From NCBI RefSeq assembly GCF_011304195.1, contig NZ_CP049887.1:558001-622000 (forward strand): a DNA stretch of 64,000 nt, given 5' to 3'. The translations under genes were made by a program, and so were the position numbers. The notes under the pieces were generated by a model. It searched no databases. It saw only the letters and a program-made list of their open reading frames with translations, and was not told the DNA's origin. Positions 1-61,640 of the stretch are shown one piece after another; within the stretch, counting starts at the first letter, position 1; each line of letters starts with the position of its first letter. Source of the DNA: Vagococcus hydrophili. GTDB lineage: Bacteria > Bacillota > Bacilli > Lactobacillales > Vagococcaceae.

Positions 1-146
1 AATGAAATTTTTGTGATTAACGTCTTATTTCGTGAAGTTAAACATCTCGTTACAACTTCAATATAGTTATCTTTCAAAAAGTAGATTCTTTAAACTGGAT
101 GAAAAAAAGGACTAGCTTTTTGATTTTAACTTCAATTCTATATTTC

Positions 147-18964: not shown

Positions 18965-18970
18965 TAGAAA

Positions 18971-19010
18971 AGGGACTGTGACATAAGTACGTCACAGTCC
19001 CTCTTTTACA
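18971..19010 (+). terminator. Strong terminator after zwf
   Basis: A perfect 12-bp stem (AGGGACTGTGAC at 18971-18982 with GTCACAGTCCCT at 18991-19002), an 8-base loop and a T-run. Confidence 0.9.
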
Positions 19011-19020
19011 AACAAAACGG

Positions 19021-19130
19021 TGTCACAGAAGTAGCTTCTTCGGAAATAAGCCGAAAATCACAAAAATTTAAAAAGCAATTTTCGTAATTTCCTTCTTATC
19101 TCTTGAAGCTGAACACTTCTGTCACAACCT
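19021..19130. repeat. Long imperfect inverted repeat after ileS
   Basis: TGTCACAGAAGT at 19022-19033 pairs with ACTTCTGTCACA near 19116-19127. Inner GCTTC/GAAGC and CGAAAAT/ATTTTCG pairings give a roughly 105-base imperfect hairpin. It lies directly downstream of the leftward ileS stop codon and could serve as its terminator, although it lacks a classic T-run. The gene-free stretch 18965-19132 holds only this and the zwf terminator. Confidence 0.6.
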
Positions 19131-19132
19131 CT

Positions 19133-37072: not shown

Positions 37073-37192
37073 ATGAGTAAAAAACCAAAAAGCACTTTCT
37101 CAAAAATCACTACTGTAGTTATTTGGGTGATGTTAATTGCCATGGTAGGCGGAGCAGTCGTAACTGCACTAGCAAGCTTAGGTATGATTTAA
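37073..37192 (+). CDS. Small DUF4044-family membrane protein
   Basis: A 39-residue single-pass membrane protein. A Lys-rich start ('MSKKPKSTFSKIT') is followed by one hydrophobic helix at about 14-37. AAGGCGG lies upstream of the ATG. Short proteins of this pattern (DUF4044) are conserved near mraZ in Enterococcaceae and related families, with no known function. It is directly followed by a copy of the hairpin repeat described at 37197. Confidence 0.7.
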   Translation: MSKKPKSTFSKITTVVIWVMLIAMVGGAVVTALASLGMI

Positions 37193-37196
37193 AACA

Positions 37197-37320
37197 AAAG
37201 TGAATAAAAAATCGGTTTGCTCCAAGTAACTGGAAGAAATGAAAAACAATTCGCGCTTTTTGAATTGATTTTCATTTCTGAAGTTGTCGTGGGAGCAGAT
37301 TTTTTATTCCGGATTAAACA
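37197..37320. repeat. Structured hairpin repeat, copy A
   Basis: A long imperfect hairpin. Outer stem 37202-37213 with 37298-37309 (12 bp perfect). Next stem TGCTCC at 37218-37223 with GGAGCA at 37292-37297. An internal loop contains AACT/AGTT. Inner stem 37236-37252 with 37262-37278 (16 of 17 paired) and a 9-base loop. It shares layout, loop size and conserved internal-loop sequence with copy B at 43764. It ends with CCGGATTAAACA. Confidence 0.8.
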
Positions 37321-37323
37321 TGG

Positions 37324-37379
37324 TGATGAAAAAGGCGTTCAACTTCAAGTAACATGGAGTTAAACGTCTTTTTCATTTG
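37324..37379 (-). terminator. Shortened repeat unit acting as recN terminator
   Basis: ATGAAAAAGGCGTT at the left pairs with AACGTCTTTTTCAT at the right (one mismatch), right after the recN stop codon. Its left half matches the start of repeat copy C (43893 onward), so it looks like an internally deleted repeat unit that now serves as a terminator. Confidence 0.65.
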
Positions 37380-37380
37380 A

Positions 37381-39057
37381 TTATTTTTTCTGTGCAATCG
37401 ACAATAATTCTTTCGCATGCTCCAATGTCAGCGGCGTGATTTCTGCTCCCGACAACATTCTAGCAACTTCATCCACTCGCTCGGTCGCTGCCAATTCACT
37501 AACACTTGTTTCTGTTCGCTTATTTATTATTTCCTTTTTGATAAAATACTGAGTATCAGCAATCGCTGCCACTTGAGGCAAATGAGTGATACATAGTACT
37601 TGAGAGTTCGTTCCAATTTGATGGATTTTCTCTGCAATTGCTTGAGCCACTCGACCACTTACACCAGTGTCCACTTCATCAAATACAATACTTGTCATAC
37701 CGTGATTTTTCGAAAAAATTGTTTTTATCGCTAACATCACACGAGATAACTCACCGCCAGAAGCCACTTTAACTAAAGGTTTCAAATCTTCCCCTAAATT
37801 GGTAGAAATGAAAAATTCAACTTTATCTAAGCCTGTTTCATTCGGTTTATCTAACTCAGTAAACATTACTTTAAAGCGAGTGTTTTCCATGAATAAGCTT
37901 TTTAATTCTGTTAAGATATTTTCTTCTAAGTTTCCAGCTGTTTCTTTTCGGCATTGACTTAGCTCTCGACCTAAAGAATCAACCAATTCTTTTTCAGATT
38001 CCAAATCCCGTTCTACCTGTTCAACATCTAAGCCACCAAATTCTGAAAGAGATAGTTCTTCTTTAATATACTCAAAATGCTCTAATATTTTTTCAACAGT
38101 CTCACCGTATTTTCTTTTCAACTGACGAATGACATCTAGCCTGCTTTCAACTTCGAGCAAACGAGATTCATCCAATTCCAAATCATCCACAAATGCCGAA
38201 ACATTTGTTAGAGCTTCTTGTAAGGAGTAGTAACTTGTTTGAATCAACTCACTTGTTTCTTTATAAGATGGATCTAAATCTTCAATGCTACTCATCTCAT
38301 TCATTGCCTGAGCAACTAAATCCAACGCCTGACTTTCATCACCATTGATAGCATTATACGTATTTTTTAAACCGTCTGTAATTTGTTGAAAACTAACTAG
38401 TTTTTTTCGTTCCTCTAGAAGTTGCTCTTCCTCATTAGGTAAAAGTTCCGCTTCATTAATCTCTTCAAATTGAAATTGCAACATGTCCATTCGTTGAACA
38501 TATTCTTTTTCATTAGCATGAAATTTCTTAAGGTTCATTTCTAATTCTTTGAATTTAGTATAATGTATCCGATAATCAGCTAATACAGGCGTCAAACGAT
38601 CCACATCAAACTGATCCAACAACCCTAAATGATGAGTCGCTTCCATTAATTCTTGATGCTCGTTTTGACCATGAATATCAACCAAATATTGTCCCATCCC
38701 TCTTAAGGTTTTCGTATTAACCAACTGGCCATTAATGCGACAGTTATTTCTCCCGGTTCGGTAAATTTCTCGTTGAACAACCAAGACATCATCAACCATC
38801 TCAATGCCACAATCTGCTAAATAACGATCCATCTCTTGATTACTTTCAACATAAAAAGACCCTTCAATGCGACATTTTTCTGCCCCATCTCGAATAAAAT
38901 CACTGGAACCACGCCCGCCAACAATCAAACCCATCGCATCAATAATAATCGATTTACCCGCACCTGTTTCACCAGTCAGAACTGTCATACCTTCTTTAAA
39001 TTCAATATTCAAATTAGAAATAATCGCAAAATCTTGGACAGATAATTCTTGTATCAT
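37381..39057 (-). CDS. recN: DNA repair protein RecN
   Basis: A 558-residue SMC-like ATPase for double-strand break repair. Walker A 'TGETGAGKS' is at 28-36, long coiled coils run from about 150 to 375, and the C-terminal lobe has signature 'VASGGELSRVML' and Walker B 'SIVFDEVDTG'. It is the last gene of the leftward nusB-recN block, after argR, the common Firmicutes order. Confidence 0.96.
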   Translation of the reverse strand: MIQELSVQDFAIISNLNIEFKEGMTVLTGETGAGKSIIIDAMGLIVGGRGSSDFIRDGAEKCRIEGSFYVESNQEMDRYLADCGIEMVDDVLVVQREIYRTGRNNCRINGQLVNTKTLRGMGQYLVDIHGQNEHQELMEATHHLGLLDQFDVDRLTPVLADYRIHYTKFKELEMNLKKFHANEKEYVQRMDMLQFQFEEINEAELLPNEEEQLLEERKKLVSFQQITDGLKNTYNAINGDESQALDLVAQAMNEMSSIEDLDPSYKETSELIQTSYYSLQEALTNVSAFVDDLELDESRLLEVESRLDVIRQLKRKYGETVEKILEHFEYIKEELSLSEFGGLDVEQVERDLESEKELVDSLGRELSQCRKETAGNLEENILTELKSLFMENTRFKVMFTELDKPNETGLDKVEFFISTNLGEDLKPLVKVASGGELSRVMLAIKTIFSKNHGMTSIVFDEVDTGVSGRVAQAIAEKIHQIGTNSQVLCITHLPQVAAIADTQYFIKKEIINKRTETSVSELAATERVDEVARMLSGAEITPLTLEHAKELLSIAQKK

Positions 39058-39071
39058 ATATGATCACCTTC

Positions 39072-39518
39072 TTATACAATTTCTAATATCCTAGTTTCCA
39101 AATCAAGAGCTAACTCTTCTGATTTAGCAAAAATCAAGACTTTATCATCATTCACCATCACTGTAAATATATCAGCTTTATAATAAGATTCAATCGCGCC
39201 ACCTAACGCAAATCCACTACCTGGTTTAGTAATGATCACAATCATCTTATCCATTTGATGAATATCCATAAAGGAACTTTTTAACATCCGCTCAAACTTC
39301 GCAAAACTCGAACGATCCTCTTCCGGCATACTATACGTGAAGTGTTTATCTTCGCCTTGTTTTTTAACTAATTTCATTTCTTTAATATCTCTCGACACGG
39401 TTGCTTGAGTCACCAAAATATTATTTTCTAGTAATAATCGAACTAATTCTTCTTGCTTAGATACTTTTTCTTCAGTAATAATCTTCTCAATCCACTGATG
39501 TCTTTCTTGCTTTCTCAT
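39072..39518 (-). CDS. argR: Arginine repressor ArgR/AhrC family
   Basis: A 148-residue regulator with an N-terminal winged helix-turn-helix ('NNILVTQATVSRDIKEMKLV') and a C-terminal hexamerisation and arginine-binding domain ('GSGFALGGAIES'). It senses arginine and controls arginine metabolism; enterococci often have several paralogues. It lies between tlyA and recN. Whether this copy is a repressor or an activator is not decidable from sequence. Confidence 0.92.
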   Translation of the reverse strand: MRKQERHQWIEKIITEEKVSKQEELVRLLLENNILVTQATVSRDIKEMKLVKKQGEDKHFTYSMPEEDRSSFAKFERMLKSSFMDIHQMDKMIVIITKPGSGFALGGAIESYYKADIFTVMVNDDKVLIFAKSEELALDLETRILEIV

Positions 39519-39541
39519 TTTTGTTTCCTCCAGTTAACAAA

Positions 39542-40366
39542 TTACGTTAGCCTACTATGAGATAACTCTACAATCTCTTCTGCTGACAAATCACTTAAAA
39601 ATTGTCCCATGCCATCAGCAGGTTTCAAGTGAGCTAAAAATTCAATGTTCCCATCCCCACCTGTAATCGGTGAAAAATCAAGTCCTTCTACATTAAAGCC
39701 AAACTCTTGAACAAAAGTTAGCACGTCTTTCAACACAGATAAATGAACTTTCTTATCTCGAATAATCCCTTTTTTACCAACTTGAGCTTTTCCAGCTTCA
39801 AATTGTGGCTTAATCAGAGCAACGACCTCCCCATCAGAAGAGATAATCGTTCTTAAGACAGGTAATATCAATTTTAAAGAAATAAAAGACACATCAATAG
39901 ACGCGACATTTGGTTGCCCTTTGGTAAAGTCTTCTAATTTAGAATATCTAAAGTTAGTTTTTTCCATTACTTCTACTCGCTCGTCTTGTCTTAACTTCCA
40001 AGCTAATTGATTAGAACCAACGTCTAAAGCGTAGCTCATTTTGGCACCATTTTGCAAAGCAACATCAGTAAATCCTCCTGTGGAAGAACCAATATCAAGT
40101 AATGTTTTCCCTTCAAAATCAATAGAAAAAGACGACATTGCTTTTTCTAATTTTAAACCACCACGAGAAACATATTTTAACGCCTGTCCTTTTAACCTAA
40201 GAACAGAATCAGCTGAAATTTTCTCACCCGGCTTGTCATAACGAACACCATTAGCATCTACTACAAGTCCTGCCATGACATTTCTTTTTGCCTTTTCACG
40301 CGTTTCACTTAACCCTTGTTGAACGACTAAAACGTCCACACGCTCTTTTTTTACTTTTTCGCCCAT
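39542..40366 (-). CDS. tlyA: TlyA-family rRNA 2'-O-methyltransferase
   Basis: A 274-residue protein with an N-terminal S4 domain ('RVDVLVVQQGLSETREKAKR') and an FtsJ-like Rossmann methyltransferase domain ('LLDIGSSTGGFTDVAL'). Family members methylate cytidines in 16S and/or 23S rRNA. Its ATG overlaps the stop codon of ispA by one base. The neighbourhood (ispA, argR, recN) is the canonical one for yqxC of Bacillus. Confidence 0.92.
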   Translation of the reverse strand: MGEKVKKERVDVLVVQQGLSETREKAKRNVMAGLVVDANGVRYDKPGEKISADSVLRLKGQALKYVSRGGLKLEKAMSSFSIDFEGKTLLDIGSSTGGFTDVALQNGAKMSYALDVGSNQLAWKLRQDERVEVMEKTNFRYSKLEDFTKGQPNVASIDVSFISLKLILPVLRTIISSDGEVVALIKPQFEAGKAQVGKKGIIRDKKVHLSVLKDVLTFVQEFGFNVEGLDFSPITGGDGNIEFLAHLKPADGMGQFLSDLSAEEIVELSHSRLT

Positions 40367-41262
40367 TATAATACCTTCAATTCTTCTAAAATAGCATCTA
40401 ATAACGTTTCTTTTTCAGGATAACCTAACAATACTTTACTTTGATTTAACGATTTTTGCGCTTGGTTACAGTAAGATTCAAATGCCTCTTTGGCTCCGTC
40501 TAAACCTAAAAATGAAACATAAGTATTTTTATCATGAGCCGCATCCGCCCCTGTTTTTTTACCAATAACCGCTTCATCCCCAATAACATCCAGTAAATCA
40601 TCTTTCACTTGAAAAGCCATACCTAAACATTCAGCATATTCAACAAGATTCTTTTTAACTTCCATATTATCAGAACTTAACGTTACACCAGCTTCCACTG
40701 CAAATTTGATCAATTCACCCGTTTTTTTACTGTGCATCTTTTGAAGCTCGTCTAATGTGATTTGTTTGTTCTCACCCAACATATCTTCCATTTGGCCAGC
40801 AATCATACCACTTGCCCCTGACGCTTTTGCGAGCAGACTAATTAACTCAACTTTTAAAGAACTGTCCAGTGTTGTTTCTGACACTAAATGAAAAGCCTCT
40901 GTTAATAAAGCATCTCCCGCTAGAATGGCTACTGCCTCACCATAAACTTTATGATTTGTTGGCTTACCGCGTCTTAGATCGTCATCATCCATCGCTGGTA
41001 GATCATCATGAATTAAAGAGTACGTATGGATCATCTCTAAGCTCGCAGCCACACTGTAATGTTTTTTCTCTAAAGGGATATCAAAAAAATCTACTGTTCC
41101 TAAAAGAAGTAGCGGTCTAAATCTTTTACCACCAGCCGCAAGAGAATAGTTCATCGCTTCTACTAATAATTCAGATTGATTGTGCCCTTTTAAAAAAGAC
41201 ATCATTTCTTGATCGATTAAAGGAATTTGTTCCGTCGCAAATTCTTTATAATTCAAACTCAT
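40366..41262 (-). CDS. ispA: Polyprenyl (farnesyl) diphosphate synthase
   Basis: A 298-residue all-helical prenyltransferase that makes farnesyl or geranyl diphosphate for undecaprenyl phosphate and quinones. First Asp-rich motif 'DDLPAMDDDDLRRG' near 86-99, second 'FQVKDDLLDVIGD', and 'GKKTGADAAHDKNTY' before the C-terminal helices. It follows xseB by 2 bp and overlaps tlyA by one base, indicating one transcript. Confidence 0.95.
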   Translation of the reverse strand: MSLNYKEFATEQIPLIDQEMMSFLKGHNQSELLVEAMNYSLAAGGKRFRPLLLLGTVDFFDIPLEKKHYSVAASLEMIHTYSLIHDDLPAMDDDDLRRGKPTNHKVYGEAVAILAGDALLTEAFHLVSETTLDSSLKVELISLLAKASGASGMIAGQMEDMLGENKQITLDELQKMHSKKTGELIKFAVEAGVTLSSDNMEVKKNLVEYAECLGMAFQVKDDLLDVIGDEAVIGKKTGADAAHDKNTYVSFLGLDGAKEAFESYCNQAQKSLNQSKVLLGYPEKETLLDAILEELKVL

Positions 41263-41264
41263 CG

Positions 41265-41495
41265 CTACTCTCCCTGTTCTTCAAAAGGTACTTCTTGACC
41301 ATCATCTGACATAATTTTTGTTAATGTTTCTTCTGCGTTAGTCAACGTTTCTTGGCATAATTTACTCAAAGCAATACCTTTTTGAAATTGATCTAAAGCA
41401 TCCTCTAAAGGTACCTCACCTGTCTCTAATTGTTTCACTATATTCTCAAGTTCCTCTAAAGAAGCTTCAAAGGTTTGTTTTTTTTCTTTTACCAT
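41265..41495 (-). CDS. xseB: Exonuclease VII small subunit
   Basis: A 76-residue subunit of the single-strand-specific exonuclease VII. It shows the family core '[20 protein letters not shown]' followed by '[17 protein letters not shown]'. The ATG at 41495, with AAAGGA about ten bases upstream and placed 4 bases after the xseA stop codon, is preferred over an in-frame start at 41516 inside xseA. Confidence 0.93.
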
Positions 41496-41499
41496 ATTC

Positions 41500-42840
41500 T
41501 CAATCCTTTCTAACAACGTTTTTAGCAGTTGCCTCTATCACGCCGTCTGACAAATGAATATTTAATAGTTGCTCTTCCTCTATTTCATCCACTGATTTTA
41601 TAATTTTTTCATTCACTGTTGTGTAACTATAACCGCGTAGCATTGTTTTAAGAGGGCTCAACATATCCAAACGCACTACTGATTGCTGCATCTCTCTCTT
41701 TTTATCTGCTAACAAACGTGCCATACTTTTTTCTAATTTATCATCTAGAAATACCACTTGTTGCTTCGATACATTCACTTTTTCTTGAGGATTTCTAAAA
41801 TAAAGTCGTTGCTTCATTTGTTCAAAAGCTTTTTCTTTTTGATTTATCTCTTGTGCTAAACTTTGCTCTAATCTACGGTTCAGTGTATCTAATTGAATCG
41901 AAAAAGCTTCATACAAACGTTTAGGTTGCTTAAAAACAAAAGAATTCATCGCGTGTTCATGTTTTTGTTGCTTGTGTTTTATTTGCACAGACACCGCTTG
42001 AACCAAACGATTTTCTTTTTCCTTAATCCTTAACAACTCTTCTCTTAAGACTGGTGTTGCAAGTTCTGCTGCTGCTGTGGGTGTTGCTGCTCTCATATCC
42101 GCCACTAAATCCGCAATCGTTATATCTGTTTCATGTCCCACAGACGAAATAATAGGTGTTCTCGCTTCAAAAATAGCTCGAGCCACATTTTCTTCATTAA
42201 ACGGCCACAAATCTTCAATCGATCCGCCACCACGGGCAACAATCATCGTGTCATACTCGCTGCTTTGATCCACTTCTTTGATCCGACGAGTAATATCAGC
42301 CGCTGCTTTATCACCTTGAACCAAAGTCGGAAAGACTACCAGCTGAGCAATTGGGTACCTTCTTTTAACTGTCGTCATAATATCTCTCACAACAGCCCCA
42401 CTTGGACTGGTTACAACTGCAATCTTTTTAGGATACTTAACTAAAGGCTGTTTAAAATCAGGATTAAATAACCCTTCTTGTTGGAAAGTTTTTTTACGTT
42501 CTTCTAGCGCTTGATACAAAGCGCCAACACCATCTGGTTCCATGTGTTCCACGTAGATTTGATAACTTCCGCCAGGCTCATACAAAGAAATCCGCCCAAT
42601 AACTAAAACTTTCATACCTTCTTCTGGCTTAAATTTTAATTTCCCAAAGGCACCTTTAAACATAATCGCTGAAATCTTCGCTTGATCATCTTTTAAACTA
42701 AAATATTGATGGGCATTAGGTCTCATTCTAAAATTTGAAATCTCTCCTGTTAAAAAGATACGCTCTAGATACGGATCTGCTTCAAATTTTCGTTTTAAAT
42801 ATTTAGTTAGCGCTGTTACTGTTAAATATTTTTCAGTCAT
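41500..42840 (-). CDS. xseA: Exonuclease VII large subunit
   Basis: A 446-residue catalytic subunit of exonuclease VII. An N-terminal OB fold (about 1-100) binds DNA, the central nuclease domain carries '[12 protein letters not shown]' and '[16 protein letters not shown]', and a long coiled coil (about 270-400) binds several XseB copies. It is cotranscribed with folD upstream (gap 17 bp) and xseB downstream. Confidence 0.96.
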
Positions 42841-42857
42841 CTCTTCACAATCCTTTA

Positions 42858-43700
42858 CTAACCTCTAGCATTTGCAACGGTTTGCTCCATTAACATCGCA
42901 ATCGTCATTGGACCAACACCACCAGGAACAGGCGTAATGTAAGACGCTTTTCGACTAACTTCATCAAACTTAACATCCCCTACTAAATGGCCGTCTACAT
43001 GTCGGTTCATCCCAACATCAACCACCACTGCGCCTTCTTTAATATGATCTGCTCTTAAAAATTCAGACTCGCCAATTGCCACAATTACGATATCCGCTTC
43101 CTTTGTAATAGCTTTTAAATCTTTCGTATGAGAATGAGTTATCGTAACCGTCGCATTGCTCATTAATAATAATTGACCCATCGGTTTTCCCACAATATTA
43201 CTACGACCAATTACCACAGCTTTTTTTCCAGCAACCTCTACATCATGTTCCTCTAGTAATCTCATAATTCCGTAAGGGGTACAGGGTAACTTATCAGGTT
43301 TCCCAATAAATAATTTCCCCATATTCAGCGGATGAAACCCATCCACATCTTTTTTAGAATCAATCGCTAAAATAATTTTCTCTTCATCAATATGTTTAGG
43401 TAGTGGCAATTGTACTAATATGCCATCTACCTGTTGGTCTTCATTGTACTCATTGATTCGTCTTAACAACTCTTCTTCAGTTGTATTTTCAGGCAAACGA
43501 TCAACTTGGGAATGAAACCCAATATTTTTTGCTGAATTCTCTTTATTTTTAACGTAAACTTGACTCCCTACATCTTCACCGATTAAAATAACCACTAATT
43601 TTGGAAGTCTTTTCCCCTTTTGTTTCCATCCAGCAACTTCTTGCTTCAGATTTTCTTGAATCTTATCGCTAAGTGCGCGACCATCTAATAATATTGCCAT
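42858..43700 (-). CDS. folD: Bifunctional methylene-THF dehydrogenase/cyclohydrolase
   Basis: A 280-residue enzyme that interconverts methylene-, methenyl- and formyl-tetrahydrofolate. The active-site Lys lies in 'SQVYVKNKENSAKNIGF', 'QLPLPKHID' is conserved, and the NADP site reads 'VVIGRSNIVGKPM'. The ATG at 43700 has GGAGG eight bases upstream; an in-frame start five codons earlier lacks a site. A repeat array separates it from nusB. Confidence 0.96.
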   Translation of the reverse strand: MAILLDGRALSDKIQENLKQEVAGWKQKGKRLPKLVVILIGEDVGSQVYVKNKENSAKNIGFHSQVDRLPENTTEEELLRRINEYNEDQQVDGILVQLPLPKHIDEEKIILAIDSKKDVDGFHPLNMGKLFIGKPDKLPCTPYGIMRLLEEHDVEVAGKKAVVIGRSNIVGKPMGQLLLMSNATVTITHSHTKDLKAITKEADIVIVAIGESEFLRADHIKEGAVVVDVGMNRHVDGHLVGDVKFDEVSRKASYITPVPGGVGPMTIAMLMEQTVANARG

Positions 43701-43763
43701 TAAAAACACCTCCAAAATTTAATTACACATGCCTACATTCTAGCATAAAAAGAATTTTTGGAA

Positions 43764-43888
43764 AACAGAGTGAATAAAATATCGTTTTGCTCCAAGCAAT
43801 TGGAAGAAATTAAAAATAAGCCATGGTTTTAGGCTTGATTTTAATTTCTGAAATTGCCGCAGGAGCAGATATTTTATTCCGGACTACA
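43764..43888. repeat. Structured hairpin repeat, copy B
   Basis: Same fold and spacing as copy A with different bases: outer stem 43772-43783 with 43868-43879, TGCTCC/GGAGCA at 43788-43793 and 43862-43867, inner stem 43806-43822 with 43832-43848 (15 of 17 paired), 9-base loop. Changes relative to copy A occur in pairs on both sides of the stems. Its first 28 bases are identical to copy D. Confidence 0.8.
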
Positions 43889-44010
43889 CAGAGTGATGAA
43901 AAAGGCGTTTAACTCCAAGCAACTGGAGTGAATACTAAACAATCCACGTTTTTCGAATTGCTTTATATTAGTGAAGTTACCGAAAGAATTGCCTTTTGAA
44001 TCCGGATTAA
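43889..44010. repeat. Structured hairpin repeat, degenerate copy C
   Basis: A third unit follows head to tail. AAAAGGC at 43900-43906 pairs with GCCTTTT at 43991-43997. The conserved internal-loop sequence CTCCAAGCAACTGGA (43913-43927) and its partner TGAAGTTACCG (43972-43982) are kept. It ends CCGGATTAAAA like copy A. The CTCC/GGAG stem is lost. Confidence 0.65.
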
Positions 44011-44038
44011 AACAGAGTGAATAAAATATCGTTTTGCT
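44011..44038. repeat. Structured hairpin repeat, truncated copy D
   Basis: A perfect 28-base match to the first 28 bases of copy B (43764-43791), then divergence before the nusB stop codon. The exact identity suggests a recent duplication or recombination within the array. Confidence 0.75.
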
Positions 44039-44060
44039 TCACAAAAAAACTCAAACAAAA

Positions 44061-44486
44061 TTAATTGTCTGAGTCAATTTCTTTCATGACAGATGATAAC
44101 ACACCGTTGATAAAACGACGAGACTCATCATCACTAAATGTTTTCGCTAATTCGAGAGCTTCATTTAAAGATACTTTATGCGGAATATCCGACACATAAA
44201 ACATTTCGAATAAGGCAAGTCTTAAAATCGTTAAATCAGTTTTTGCAATTCGACTAACTGTCCAACGTTTTAAATGTTTTTCGATATGTTGATCTAATTC
44301 TGCTTGACGCTCTTTTACACCAGCAACTACTACTTTTACATATTGAGGAATTTCTTCACTCTGTTGTCCTTCATATAAATCTAGAACATTTTCAATGGCT
44401 TGATCAATTTCTATATCTTCAAGGTACAACATAGAAAAATTGACTTGAAACGCTACTTCTCTTAACTGATGTCTTGTTAAATCCAC
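44061..44486 (-). CDS. nusB: Transcription antitermination factor NusB
   Basis: A 141-residue all-helical RNA-binding factor for rRNA antitermination. Family marks are 'LTRHQLREVAFQ' at the N-terminus and 'VSLNEALELAKTFSDDESRRFINGVL' before the C-terminus. I chose GTG at 44486: GAGGAAG lies six bases upstream and the start follows the stop codon of the Asp23 gene by one base. In-frame ATG codons inside the upstream gene would add a non-family extension. Confidence 0.93.
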   Translation of the reverse strand: MDLTRHQLREVAFQVNFSMLYLEDIEIDQAIENVLDLYEGQQSEEIPQYVKVVVAGVKERQAELDQHIEKHLKRWTVSRIAKTDLTILRLALFEMFYVSDIPHKVSLNEALELAKTFSDDESRRFINGVLSSVMKEIDSDN

Positions 44487-60491: not shown

Positions 60492-60604
60492 GTTTGTTCC
60501 GCACCTCCTTCTCTTTACTTAGACTCGCCAATTTAAGCGCCGTAACTGAATACAGTCTGAATACTTAATATGTGCGGTTGTAGTTGTGGTGCACACAAAT
60601 ACAA
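60492..60604 (-). promoter_or_regulatory. Candidate L21 leader RNA
   Basis: About 113 bases of leader between the predicted transcription start and rplU, with GTGTGCAC near its 5' end and complementary segments such as GGCGC/GCG. Firmicutes have a conserved L21 leader that is thought to bind L21 for feedback control. I matched it by position and general character, not by a covariance model. Confidence 0.55.
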
Positions 60605-61566: not shown

Positions 61567-61640
61567 GTCGCAGTAGCTCAGCTGGATAGAGCATTCGCCT
61601 TCTAAGCGAATGGTCGGGGGTTCGAATCCCTCCTGCGACG
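61567..61640 (+). tRNA. tRNA-Arg (anticodon TCT)
   Basis: A 74-base cloverleaf. Acceptor GTCGCAG pairs with CTGCGAC with discriminator G. The anticodon stem TTCGC/GCGAA holds loop CTTCTAA, anticodon TCT (reads AGA). The T arm contains GTTCGAATC. CCA is not encoded. Its own promoter and terminator flank it, so it is a single-tRNA unit. Confidence 0.95.

What the first reader, a model, noticed from the sequence alone, without database searches (positions are those of the whole stretch)
37197..44038. Dispersed structured repeat with compensatory base changes
Copies A (37197) and B (43764) are 120-base imperfect hairpins with the same stem lengths, the same 9-base apical loop and a conserved internal loop (AAGyAAyTGGA opposite TGAArTTGyCG). 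Stem bases that differ between copies change in pairs: outer AAAAAATC/GATTTTTT versus AAAATATC/GATATTTT; middle AACT/AGTT versus AATT/AATT; inner GAAATG/CATTTC versus GAAATT/AATTTC; apical CAATTC/GAATTG versus TAAGCC/GGCTTA-like. Such covariation means the fold is kept by selection or by a copying mechanism. Units are arranged head to tail (A plus a shortened unit after recN; B, C and D between nusB and folD). Copy D matches 28 bases of B exactly, showing recent movement or duplication. This could be a new structured RNA, a REP-like element or a transcript-processing site.
Basis: seen in the sequence. Interest (0 to 1): 0.8.

Follow-up and report, generated by a model that had tools for sequence, protein, structure and literature searches.

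The report
Folded repeats at gene-end terminators
The two hairpin loci are members of a large family of small folded DNA repeats that appear to have spread through this bacterium by settling at the ends of genes beside transcription terminators, and whose relatives, probably including a repeat already described in Enterococcus faecalis, occur patchily across lactic-acid bacteria.

Summary
I placed 148 in 96 arrays. The fold is strongly supported: 31 of 39 pairs covary over 68 units, reached by 0 of 500 shuffles, and 30 of 31 pairs over 46 chosen sequences from several genera.

Arrays sit at gene ends. In 74 of 96 a same-strand gene lies upstream, median 2 nt from its stop codon. A terminator-like hairpin lies within 130 nt of the array's 3' end in 84 of 96, against 20 of 95 on the 5' side. 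Sister species G004 has no full unit at 9 of 12 mapped sites, both window sites included. About 7 nt of host flank recur at unit junctions. G·T exceeds A·C on one strand whatever the neighbouring genes' direction.

Best reading: non-autonomous mobile repeats, related to E. faecalis Efa-1/EFAR, that insert at terminators. REP/RAYT is not supported: no Y1 transposase match in either high-copy genome. The mobilising enzyme is unknown.

The parts
37200..37316 (+). Unit A: full hairpin unit (arms R and S), 7 nt after the stop codon (37190-37192) of a 39-codon + strand ORF
   Evidence: 39 of 39 consensus pairs; the site has no unit in sister G004
37323..37376 (+). Shortened terminal unit: R' arm followed by its own complement, a terminator-like hairpin between the + strand ORF and recN (- strand, stop side at 37381)
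   Evidence: 37318-37385 as RNA, z -6.5; not listed by the consensus terminator scan
43770..43886 (+). Unit B: full hairpin unit
   Evidence: 39 of 39 consensus pairs
43893..44009 (+). Unit C: full unit with a partly decayed fold
   Evidence: 33 of 39 consensus pairs
44017..44041 (+). D: truncated terminal R' arm; with 8 nt before it, identical to the start of B over 30 bases
   Evidence: sister G004 has only a solo R arm at this site
44048..44075 (-). Terminator of nusB that the B-C-D array abuts (array antisense to nusB and folD)
19026..19132 (-). Unit of the related Enterococcus-type subfamily, next to a hairpin at about 18968-19007
   Evidence: 84% identical to an E. faecium plasmid unit; sequence; hairpin seen by eye only

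Best explanation
A Vagococcus branch of a family of small non-autonomous mobile repeats found mainly in Lactobacillales. Each 117-nt unit is one imperfect hairpin (arms R and S). A unit lands beside an intrinsic terminator at a gene's 3' end and repeats about 7 nt of host flank. Further units follow at the same place, by fresh insertion or by local tandem duplication, giving R-S-R-S-R', where the last arm R' abuts the terminator hairpin. Units can be reduced again to a solo R arm. Shown: fold and covariation, copy number, placement, sites without a unit in a sister species, flank repetition, strand-specific pairing. Inferred: that insertion is done by an enzyme acting in trans, that the folded single R-to-S strand is what that enzyme or the copying process recognises, that solo R arms are deletion products, and that units act as terminators once in place.
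For: At least 150 units in the own genome; 31 of 39 pairs covary, 0 of 500 shuffles. Patchy: 7 of 14 genomes of the genus, own included. Of 12 own arrays mapped in G004, 7 have no unit there, 2 only a solo R arm, 1 a divergent unit, 2 a unit. The 7 nt before a later unit match the host flank above permutation, also where the first two units are dissimilar (18 arrays: 0.706 against 0.524, 0 of 1000; 6 perfect) and in single-unit arrays (35 arrays: 0.694 against 0.535, 0 of 1000; 7 perfect). At 811785 the sister's unoccupied site shows that the repeated ACAAGC is host coding sequence. Terminator-like hairpin on the 3' side in 84 of 96, on the 5' side in 20 of 95. G.T 200 against A.C 39, the same trend in arrays without a same-strand upstream gene (one unit per array 28 against 2).
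Against: No transposase or autonomous copy was found; only PF01797 was tested. Flank repetition is perfect over 7 nt in only 6 of 18 and 7 of 35 arrays, so either it decays fast or not every junction arises that way. 39 of 74 within-array pairs are near copies, so local duplication is common. 33 of 96 arrays show no truncated terminal arm to the HMM. 12 of 96 show no terminator-like hairpin by my criteria. The G.T excess could partly be a mutational bias or be inherited by young copies.
Confidence: 0.62

Rival explanations
1. A host-selected 3'-UTR RNA: the hairpins are kept because they end, stabilise or process the mRNA of the gene before them.
For: 74 of 96 arrays follow a same-strand gene, median 2 nt after its stop codon; G.T tolerated on the same strand as that mRNA; at site A the element's shortened hairpin stands where the sister has another terminator-like hairpin.
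Against: 22 of 96 arrays have no same-strand upstream gene and show the same G.T excess; the sister lacks a full unit at 9 of 12 of the same sites; 7 of 14 genus genomes have no match.
Confidence: 0.15
2. An ordinary MITE: a cut-and-paste IS transposase in the genome acts on the double-stranded inverted ends, and the long hairpin is only a by-product.
For: Inverted ends and a flank repeat of about 7 nt; high copy number without coding capacity.
Against: The outer arms vary between copies with compensating changes, whereas a sequence-specific transposase should keep the letters; G.T excess on one strand. No IS with matching ends was sought genome-wide, so this stays open.
Confidence: 0.2
3. No mobility: vertical descent with slippage, unequal crossing-over and gene conversion between arrays.
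For: 39 of 74 within-array pairs are at least 90% alike in the inner stem; solo R arms at two sister sites look like deletion products.
Against: 26 of 74 within-array pairs are below 0.7, like pairs from different arrays (mean 0.666), yet first junctions of dissimilar units still repeat the host flank; 7 of 12 sister sites have no unit and no clear arm, although ancestral presence with later loss is not formally excluded.
Confidence: 0.1

Closest known systems
Efa-1 family / EFAR elements of Enterococcus faecalis (Efa-1: PMC2267715, passages and section 11; EFAR, Venditti et al. 2007: recalled, not read)
   Same: Model R1, built from this genome, finds 9 units in an E. faecalis record. By eye, 8 of these 9 have a second, terminator-like hairpin beside the unit, giving about 165-170 bp (two of the eight imperfect), like the printed Efa-1 (163, two adjacent stem-loops, intergenic, 65 members). 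Site A has the same plan.
   Different: No printed Efa-1 or EFAR sequence was compared letter by letter. The Vagococcus-type units form head-to-tail arrays of up to six units, and their sequence differs enough that BLAST with A finds nothing in the plasmid collection.
BOX, RUP and SPRITE repeats of Streptococcus pneumoniae (PMC3049150, passages and section 6)
   Same: Small structured repeats, enriched between convergent genes; BOX encodes the stop codon of 36 CDSs and has variable tandem modules; SPRITE is terminator-like.
   Different: BOX repeats its middle module (boxB) between boxA and boxC; here whole hairpins repeat and a truncated first arm often closes the array.
REP/BIME with RAYT
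   Same: Intergenic imperfect hairpins in clusters (recalled).
   Different: No Y1_Tnp match in the two high-copy genomes; units run head to tail.

Membership tests
Efa-1/EFAR | Homologous, structured repeat unit present in E. faecalis | tested here: met
   R1 finds 9 units in NZ_CP143580.1 (E 4e-12 to 3e-7); a related unit is 86% identical to E. faecalis DNA by BLAST
Efa-1/EFAR | Two adjacent stem-loops in about 163-170 bp | tested here: inconclusive
   Met at site A (117-nt unit plus shortened hairpin) and by eye in 8 of 9 E. faecalis copies; many Vagococcus arrays have several units
Efa-1/EFAR | Sequence identity with published Efa-1/EFAR members | not testable with these tools
   No printed sequences at hand; the EFAR paper is not in the library
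Efa-1/EFAR | Insertion into a stem-loop target (recalled from the EFAR abstract) | tested here: inconclusive
   Terminator-like hairpin beside the 3' end in 84 of 96; at site A the sister has a different hairpin at the place
REP with RAYT | Y1 (RAYT/IS200-like) transposase in genomes rich in the repeat | tested here: not met
   PF01797: 0 matches in G000 and G004; 8 of 14 genus genomes have it, 6 of them without the element
MITE | Terminal inverted repeats and target-site duplication | tested here: inconclusive
   Imperfect inverted ends; flank repetition above permutation but perfect in a minority
MITE | An IS in the same genome with matching ends | not tested
   No genome-wide search for ISs with like ends was made
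Known RNA family (Rfam 15) | Match to a curated covariance model at the element | tested here: not met
   None at the window's arrays at gathering score; up to E 1 none at the arrays of L091, L106, L114, L120 (which listed one other match, Ref84)
Pneumococcal BOX | boxA-boxB(n)-boxC modules | not tested
   No BOX model was available; the plan differs as described in PMC3049150

The most novel reading that the evidence does not exclude
A family of mobile elements spread over Lactobacillales that is recognised by its fold on one single strand, targets the boundary between a gene's end and its terminator, repeats about 7 nt of host flank, can take further units beside an existing R arm, and is moved by an enzyme that is not a RAYT and is not yet known.
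Probability: 0.35. Interest if true: 0.75.

Novelty: new variant of a known kind. Interest (0 to 1): 0.52.

Why it matters
It ties a repeat known from one Enterococcus species to an order-wide family with a covariance model, strand information and natural sites with and without a unit. That makes two open questions testable: what moves such repeats, and whether their insertion at terminators changes the ends of transcripts.

Tried and rejected
REP/RAYT: not supported by the distribution of PF01797. Known RNA family: no Rfam match at the arrays examined. S arm pairing with the next unit's R arm instead of its own: own pairs hold in 302 of 312 cells, next-arm pairs in 232 of 312. Pure tandem duplication: 26 of 74 within-array pairs are unlike. 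An integron attC-like site was considered because of the stop-codon position; the neighbours at the window sites are core genes (recN, nusB, folD), but no integrase search was made. The generic terminator scan of the window gave 6 against 4.2 expected and did not list the A-side hairpin. A first terminator script with stricter stems crashed after giving 59 of 96 on the 3' side and no controls; the looser rerun gave 84 of 96 with controls; both use thresholds of my own. R1 on 24 named folD loci gave one weak partial match, E 0.07. BLAST of unit A in the plasmid collection gave none. Paper searches for EFAR found no paper on it; led to PMC2267715 and PMC3049150; (Vagococcus with interspersed repeat) gave 0 and one search gave 2 papers that I did not open. 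I do not claim that the family is absent from print. PMC4894674 (passages) concerns a restriction system and is irrelevant.
Full report
Observation. Copies A, B, C and the truncated D are in the sequence as described. A and B fold far better than shuffles on both strands; C alone is weaker, with 33 of 39 consensus pairs against 39 of 39 for A and B. Used as a BLAST query, A finds 76 places in the own genome (40 of 121 first-look candidates scored; a few are antisense shadows). A covariance model, R1, was made from 68 of the 75 full units then at hand (7 left out as near-identical neighbours). It finds 150 places, which is the cap of scored candidates (150 of 4264), so this is a lower bound. 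An end-pattern scan lists a few more places outside the stretches I fetched.

Host. Its genus mate G005 has a contig of 35,810 bases carrying folD, as has NZ_JAFLVX010000008.1 of Vagococcus sp. DIV0080, so the genus is Vagococcus by inference. The sister G004 has FolD 93% identical.

Fold. On 68 units, 31 of 39 pairs have changes on both sides and 96.7% of cells pair. Shuffled letters give 83.3% and 17.1 pairs, with 0 of 500 as high on any of the five measures, and slid partners give at most 53.9%. In an alignment of 46 sequences (5 from the own genome, the rest my selection from loci of other genomes and records), 30 of 31 predicted pairs have double changes. At pairs whose commonest form is Watson-Crick, G.T outnumbers A.C 200 to 39 over 148 units, 138 to 17 with one unit per array, and 28 to 2 in the 22 arrays without a same-strand upstream gene, again one unit each (42 to 11 with all 31 distinct units there). 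So the fold is kept on one strand, irrespective of the direction of the neighbouring genes. This fits selection during copying better than selection in place on each mRNA, though young copies could carry over an older pattern and a mutational bias is not excluded.

Anatomy. A unit is 117 nt plus a junction of about 6-8 nt. I found 96 arrays with at least one full unit: 58 with one, 29 with two, 6 with three, 2 with four and 1 with six. In 63 of 96 the last HMM hit is a truncated first arm R'; some others have one too short for the HMM, such as D in the window. Within one array, pairs of units are either near copies (39 of 74 at 0.9 or more) or unlike (26 of 74 below 0.7).

Placement. With my own ORF caller, arrays lie between convergent genes in 47 cases, between two genes of the array's own direction in 27, antisense to both neighbours in 20, and between divergent genes in 2. 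In the 74 cases with a same-strand gene upstream the median distance from stop codon to array is 2 nt and 58 lie at 0-10 nt; negative distances mean that the called frame runs into the unit. Of gaps of 40 nt or more in the fetched stretches, arrays fill 2 of 76 divergent and 94 of 272 others (Fisher p 6e-10), and 47 of 72 convergent against 47 of 200 tandem (p 4e-10). The stretches were chosen for their arrays, so only the contrast counts. A terminator-like hairpin lies within 130 nt of the 3' end in 84 of 96, within 130 nt of the 5' end in 20 of 95, in 5 of 96 shuffled controls and after 86 of 259 called genes without a nearby array. In the 20 antisense arrays the hairpin is found in the reverse direction in 18 (forward in 7). 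Hence the common point seems to be the terminator rather than the mRNA strand.

Turnover. Twelve of the 96 own arrays could be mapped in the 400 kb of G004 that I took. At 7 there is no unit and no clear arm (496789, 595200 = site A, 622481, 656342, 663289, 811785, 916477; at 622481 and 663289 some R-like letters remain, at 622481 part of the flank does not align, and at 916477 the sister carries other DNA). At 2 there is a solo R arm (601770 = site B-D, and 833844). At 2 there are units (753390, and 823238 with one instead of four). At 707711 there is a divergent unit (read by eye). At 811785 the sister shows the host gene ending CAACAAGC; in the own genome ACAAGC returns at each unit junction. 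Over all arrays the 7 nt before a later unit match the host flank with 0.661 identity against 0.529 permuted (118 comparisons, 0 of 500). Where the first two units are dissimilar the figure is 0.706 against 0.524 (18 arrays, 6 perfect), and in single-unit arrays with a terminal arm 0.694 against 0.535 (35 arrays, 7 perfect; 0 of 1000 each). Insertion with target duplication would leave this; tandem duplication alone does not explain the dissimilar cases.

Distribution. R1 matches 7 of 14 genomes of the genus, own included, 17 of 29 of the family in 6 of 8 genera, 66 of 295 of the order in 23 of 72 genera with only 12 candidates scored per genome, and 8 of 299 of the class, 6 of these 8 outside the order. 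Named genomes and records: 9 units in E. faecalis NZ_CP143580.1, 24 in the genome of Enterococcus rivorum, 3 on an E. faecium plasmid, 1 on a Lactiplantibacillus plantarum plasmid; none in Vagococcus acidifermentans or Enterococcus sp. 665A. The own genome also carries the Enterococcus-type subfamily (19 BLAST matches, some short, 40 of 60 candidates scored), one of them in the window at 19026-19132.

Known relatives. Petrillo et al. 2008 (PMC2267715; passages and section 11 seen) list Efa-1 in E. faecalis: 65 members, 163 long, intergenic, two adjacent stem-loops. By eye, 8 of the 9 E. faecalis copies found with R1 have the same plan, two of them imperfectly. EFAR (Venditti et al. 2007) is recalled and was not read. 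Pneumococcal BOX, RUP and SPRITE repeats (PMC3049150; passages and section 6 seen) share the enrichment between convergent genes and, for BOX, donated stop codons. PF01797 is absent from the two high-copy genomes, and Rfam has no match at the arrays examined.

Verdict. A fold-conserved, apparently mobile repeat family, related to and probably the same family as Efa-1/EFAR. The spread over the order, the single-strand pattern, the flank repeats and the gene-end/terminator rule are the parts I have not seen described in the passages I read. The enzyme and any host use remain unknown.

Noticed in passing
window 19026-19132 (-): A unit of the Enterococcus-type subfamily (84% to an E. faecium plasmid unit), also beside a hairpin; not in the finding.
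   Followed up: partly
window 1-60: Fragment resembling the end of an Enterococcus-type unit; bases 5-31 are an inverted match (89%) to 19043-19069.
   Followed up: no
window 60511-60589 (-) and 61567-61640 (+): Ribosomal protein L21 leader and a tRNA gene, both ordinary.
   Followed up: no
own genome 973197, 1071961, 1613866, 2056212, 2150874: Single units starting GTGGGTCAA and ending CCCCTGACTA or CCCCTAACTA; four of the five are followed by a similar tail TTAAAGATTATT or TTATAGATTATT and a hairpin of the type GAGGCTGACATTTGAGTCAGCCTC: a sub-type with a partly shared tail.
   Followed up: no
L106 407-496 (+): Weak match to RF02846 Ref84, an Enterococcus sRNA (43.4 bits, gathering 52), ending beside a short R-arm hit at genome 1616093-1616132.
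   Followed up: no
own genome 1766853 and 1770175: Two arrays 3.3 kb apart behind identical called gene ends (107 codons each), so gene and array site look duplicated together.
   Followed up: no
plasmid records OL539428.1 (E. coli) and NZ_CP151545.1 (P. aeruginosa): Records of Gram-negative hosts carry an Enterococcus-type unit (86.2% and 84.5% to the query); possibly transfer or a mislabelled record.
   Followed up: no
NZ_CP143580.1 (L258, L261): A 747-kb E. faecalis record labelled plasmid carries core genes such as ligA, pcrA and gatABC in its first 50 kb, so it looks like a piece of chromosome.
   Followed up: no
phage collection records named Listeria phage LM 4-11-1 and LM 4-14-1: 53 of 76 phage records with a match to the Enterococcus-type unit are named Listeria; several are short unannotated contigs, perhaps host DNA.
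   Followed up: no
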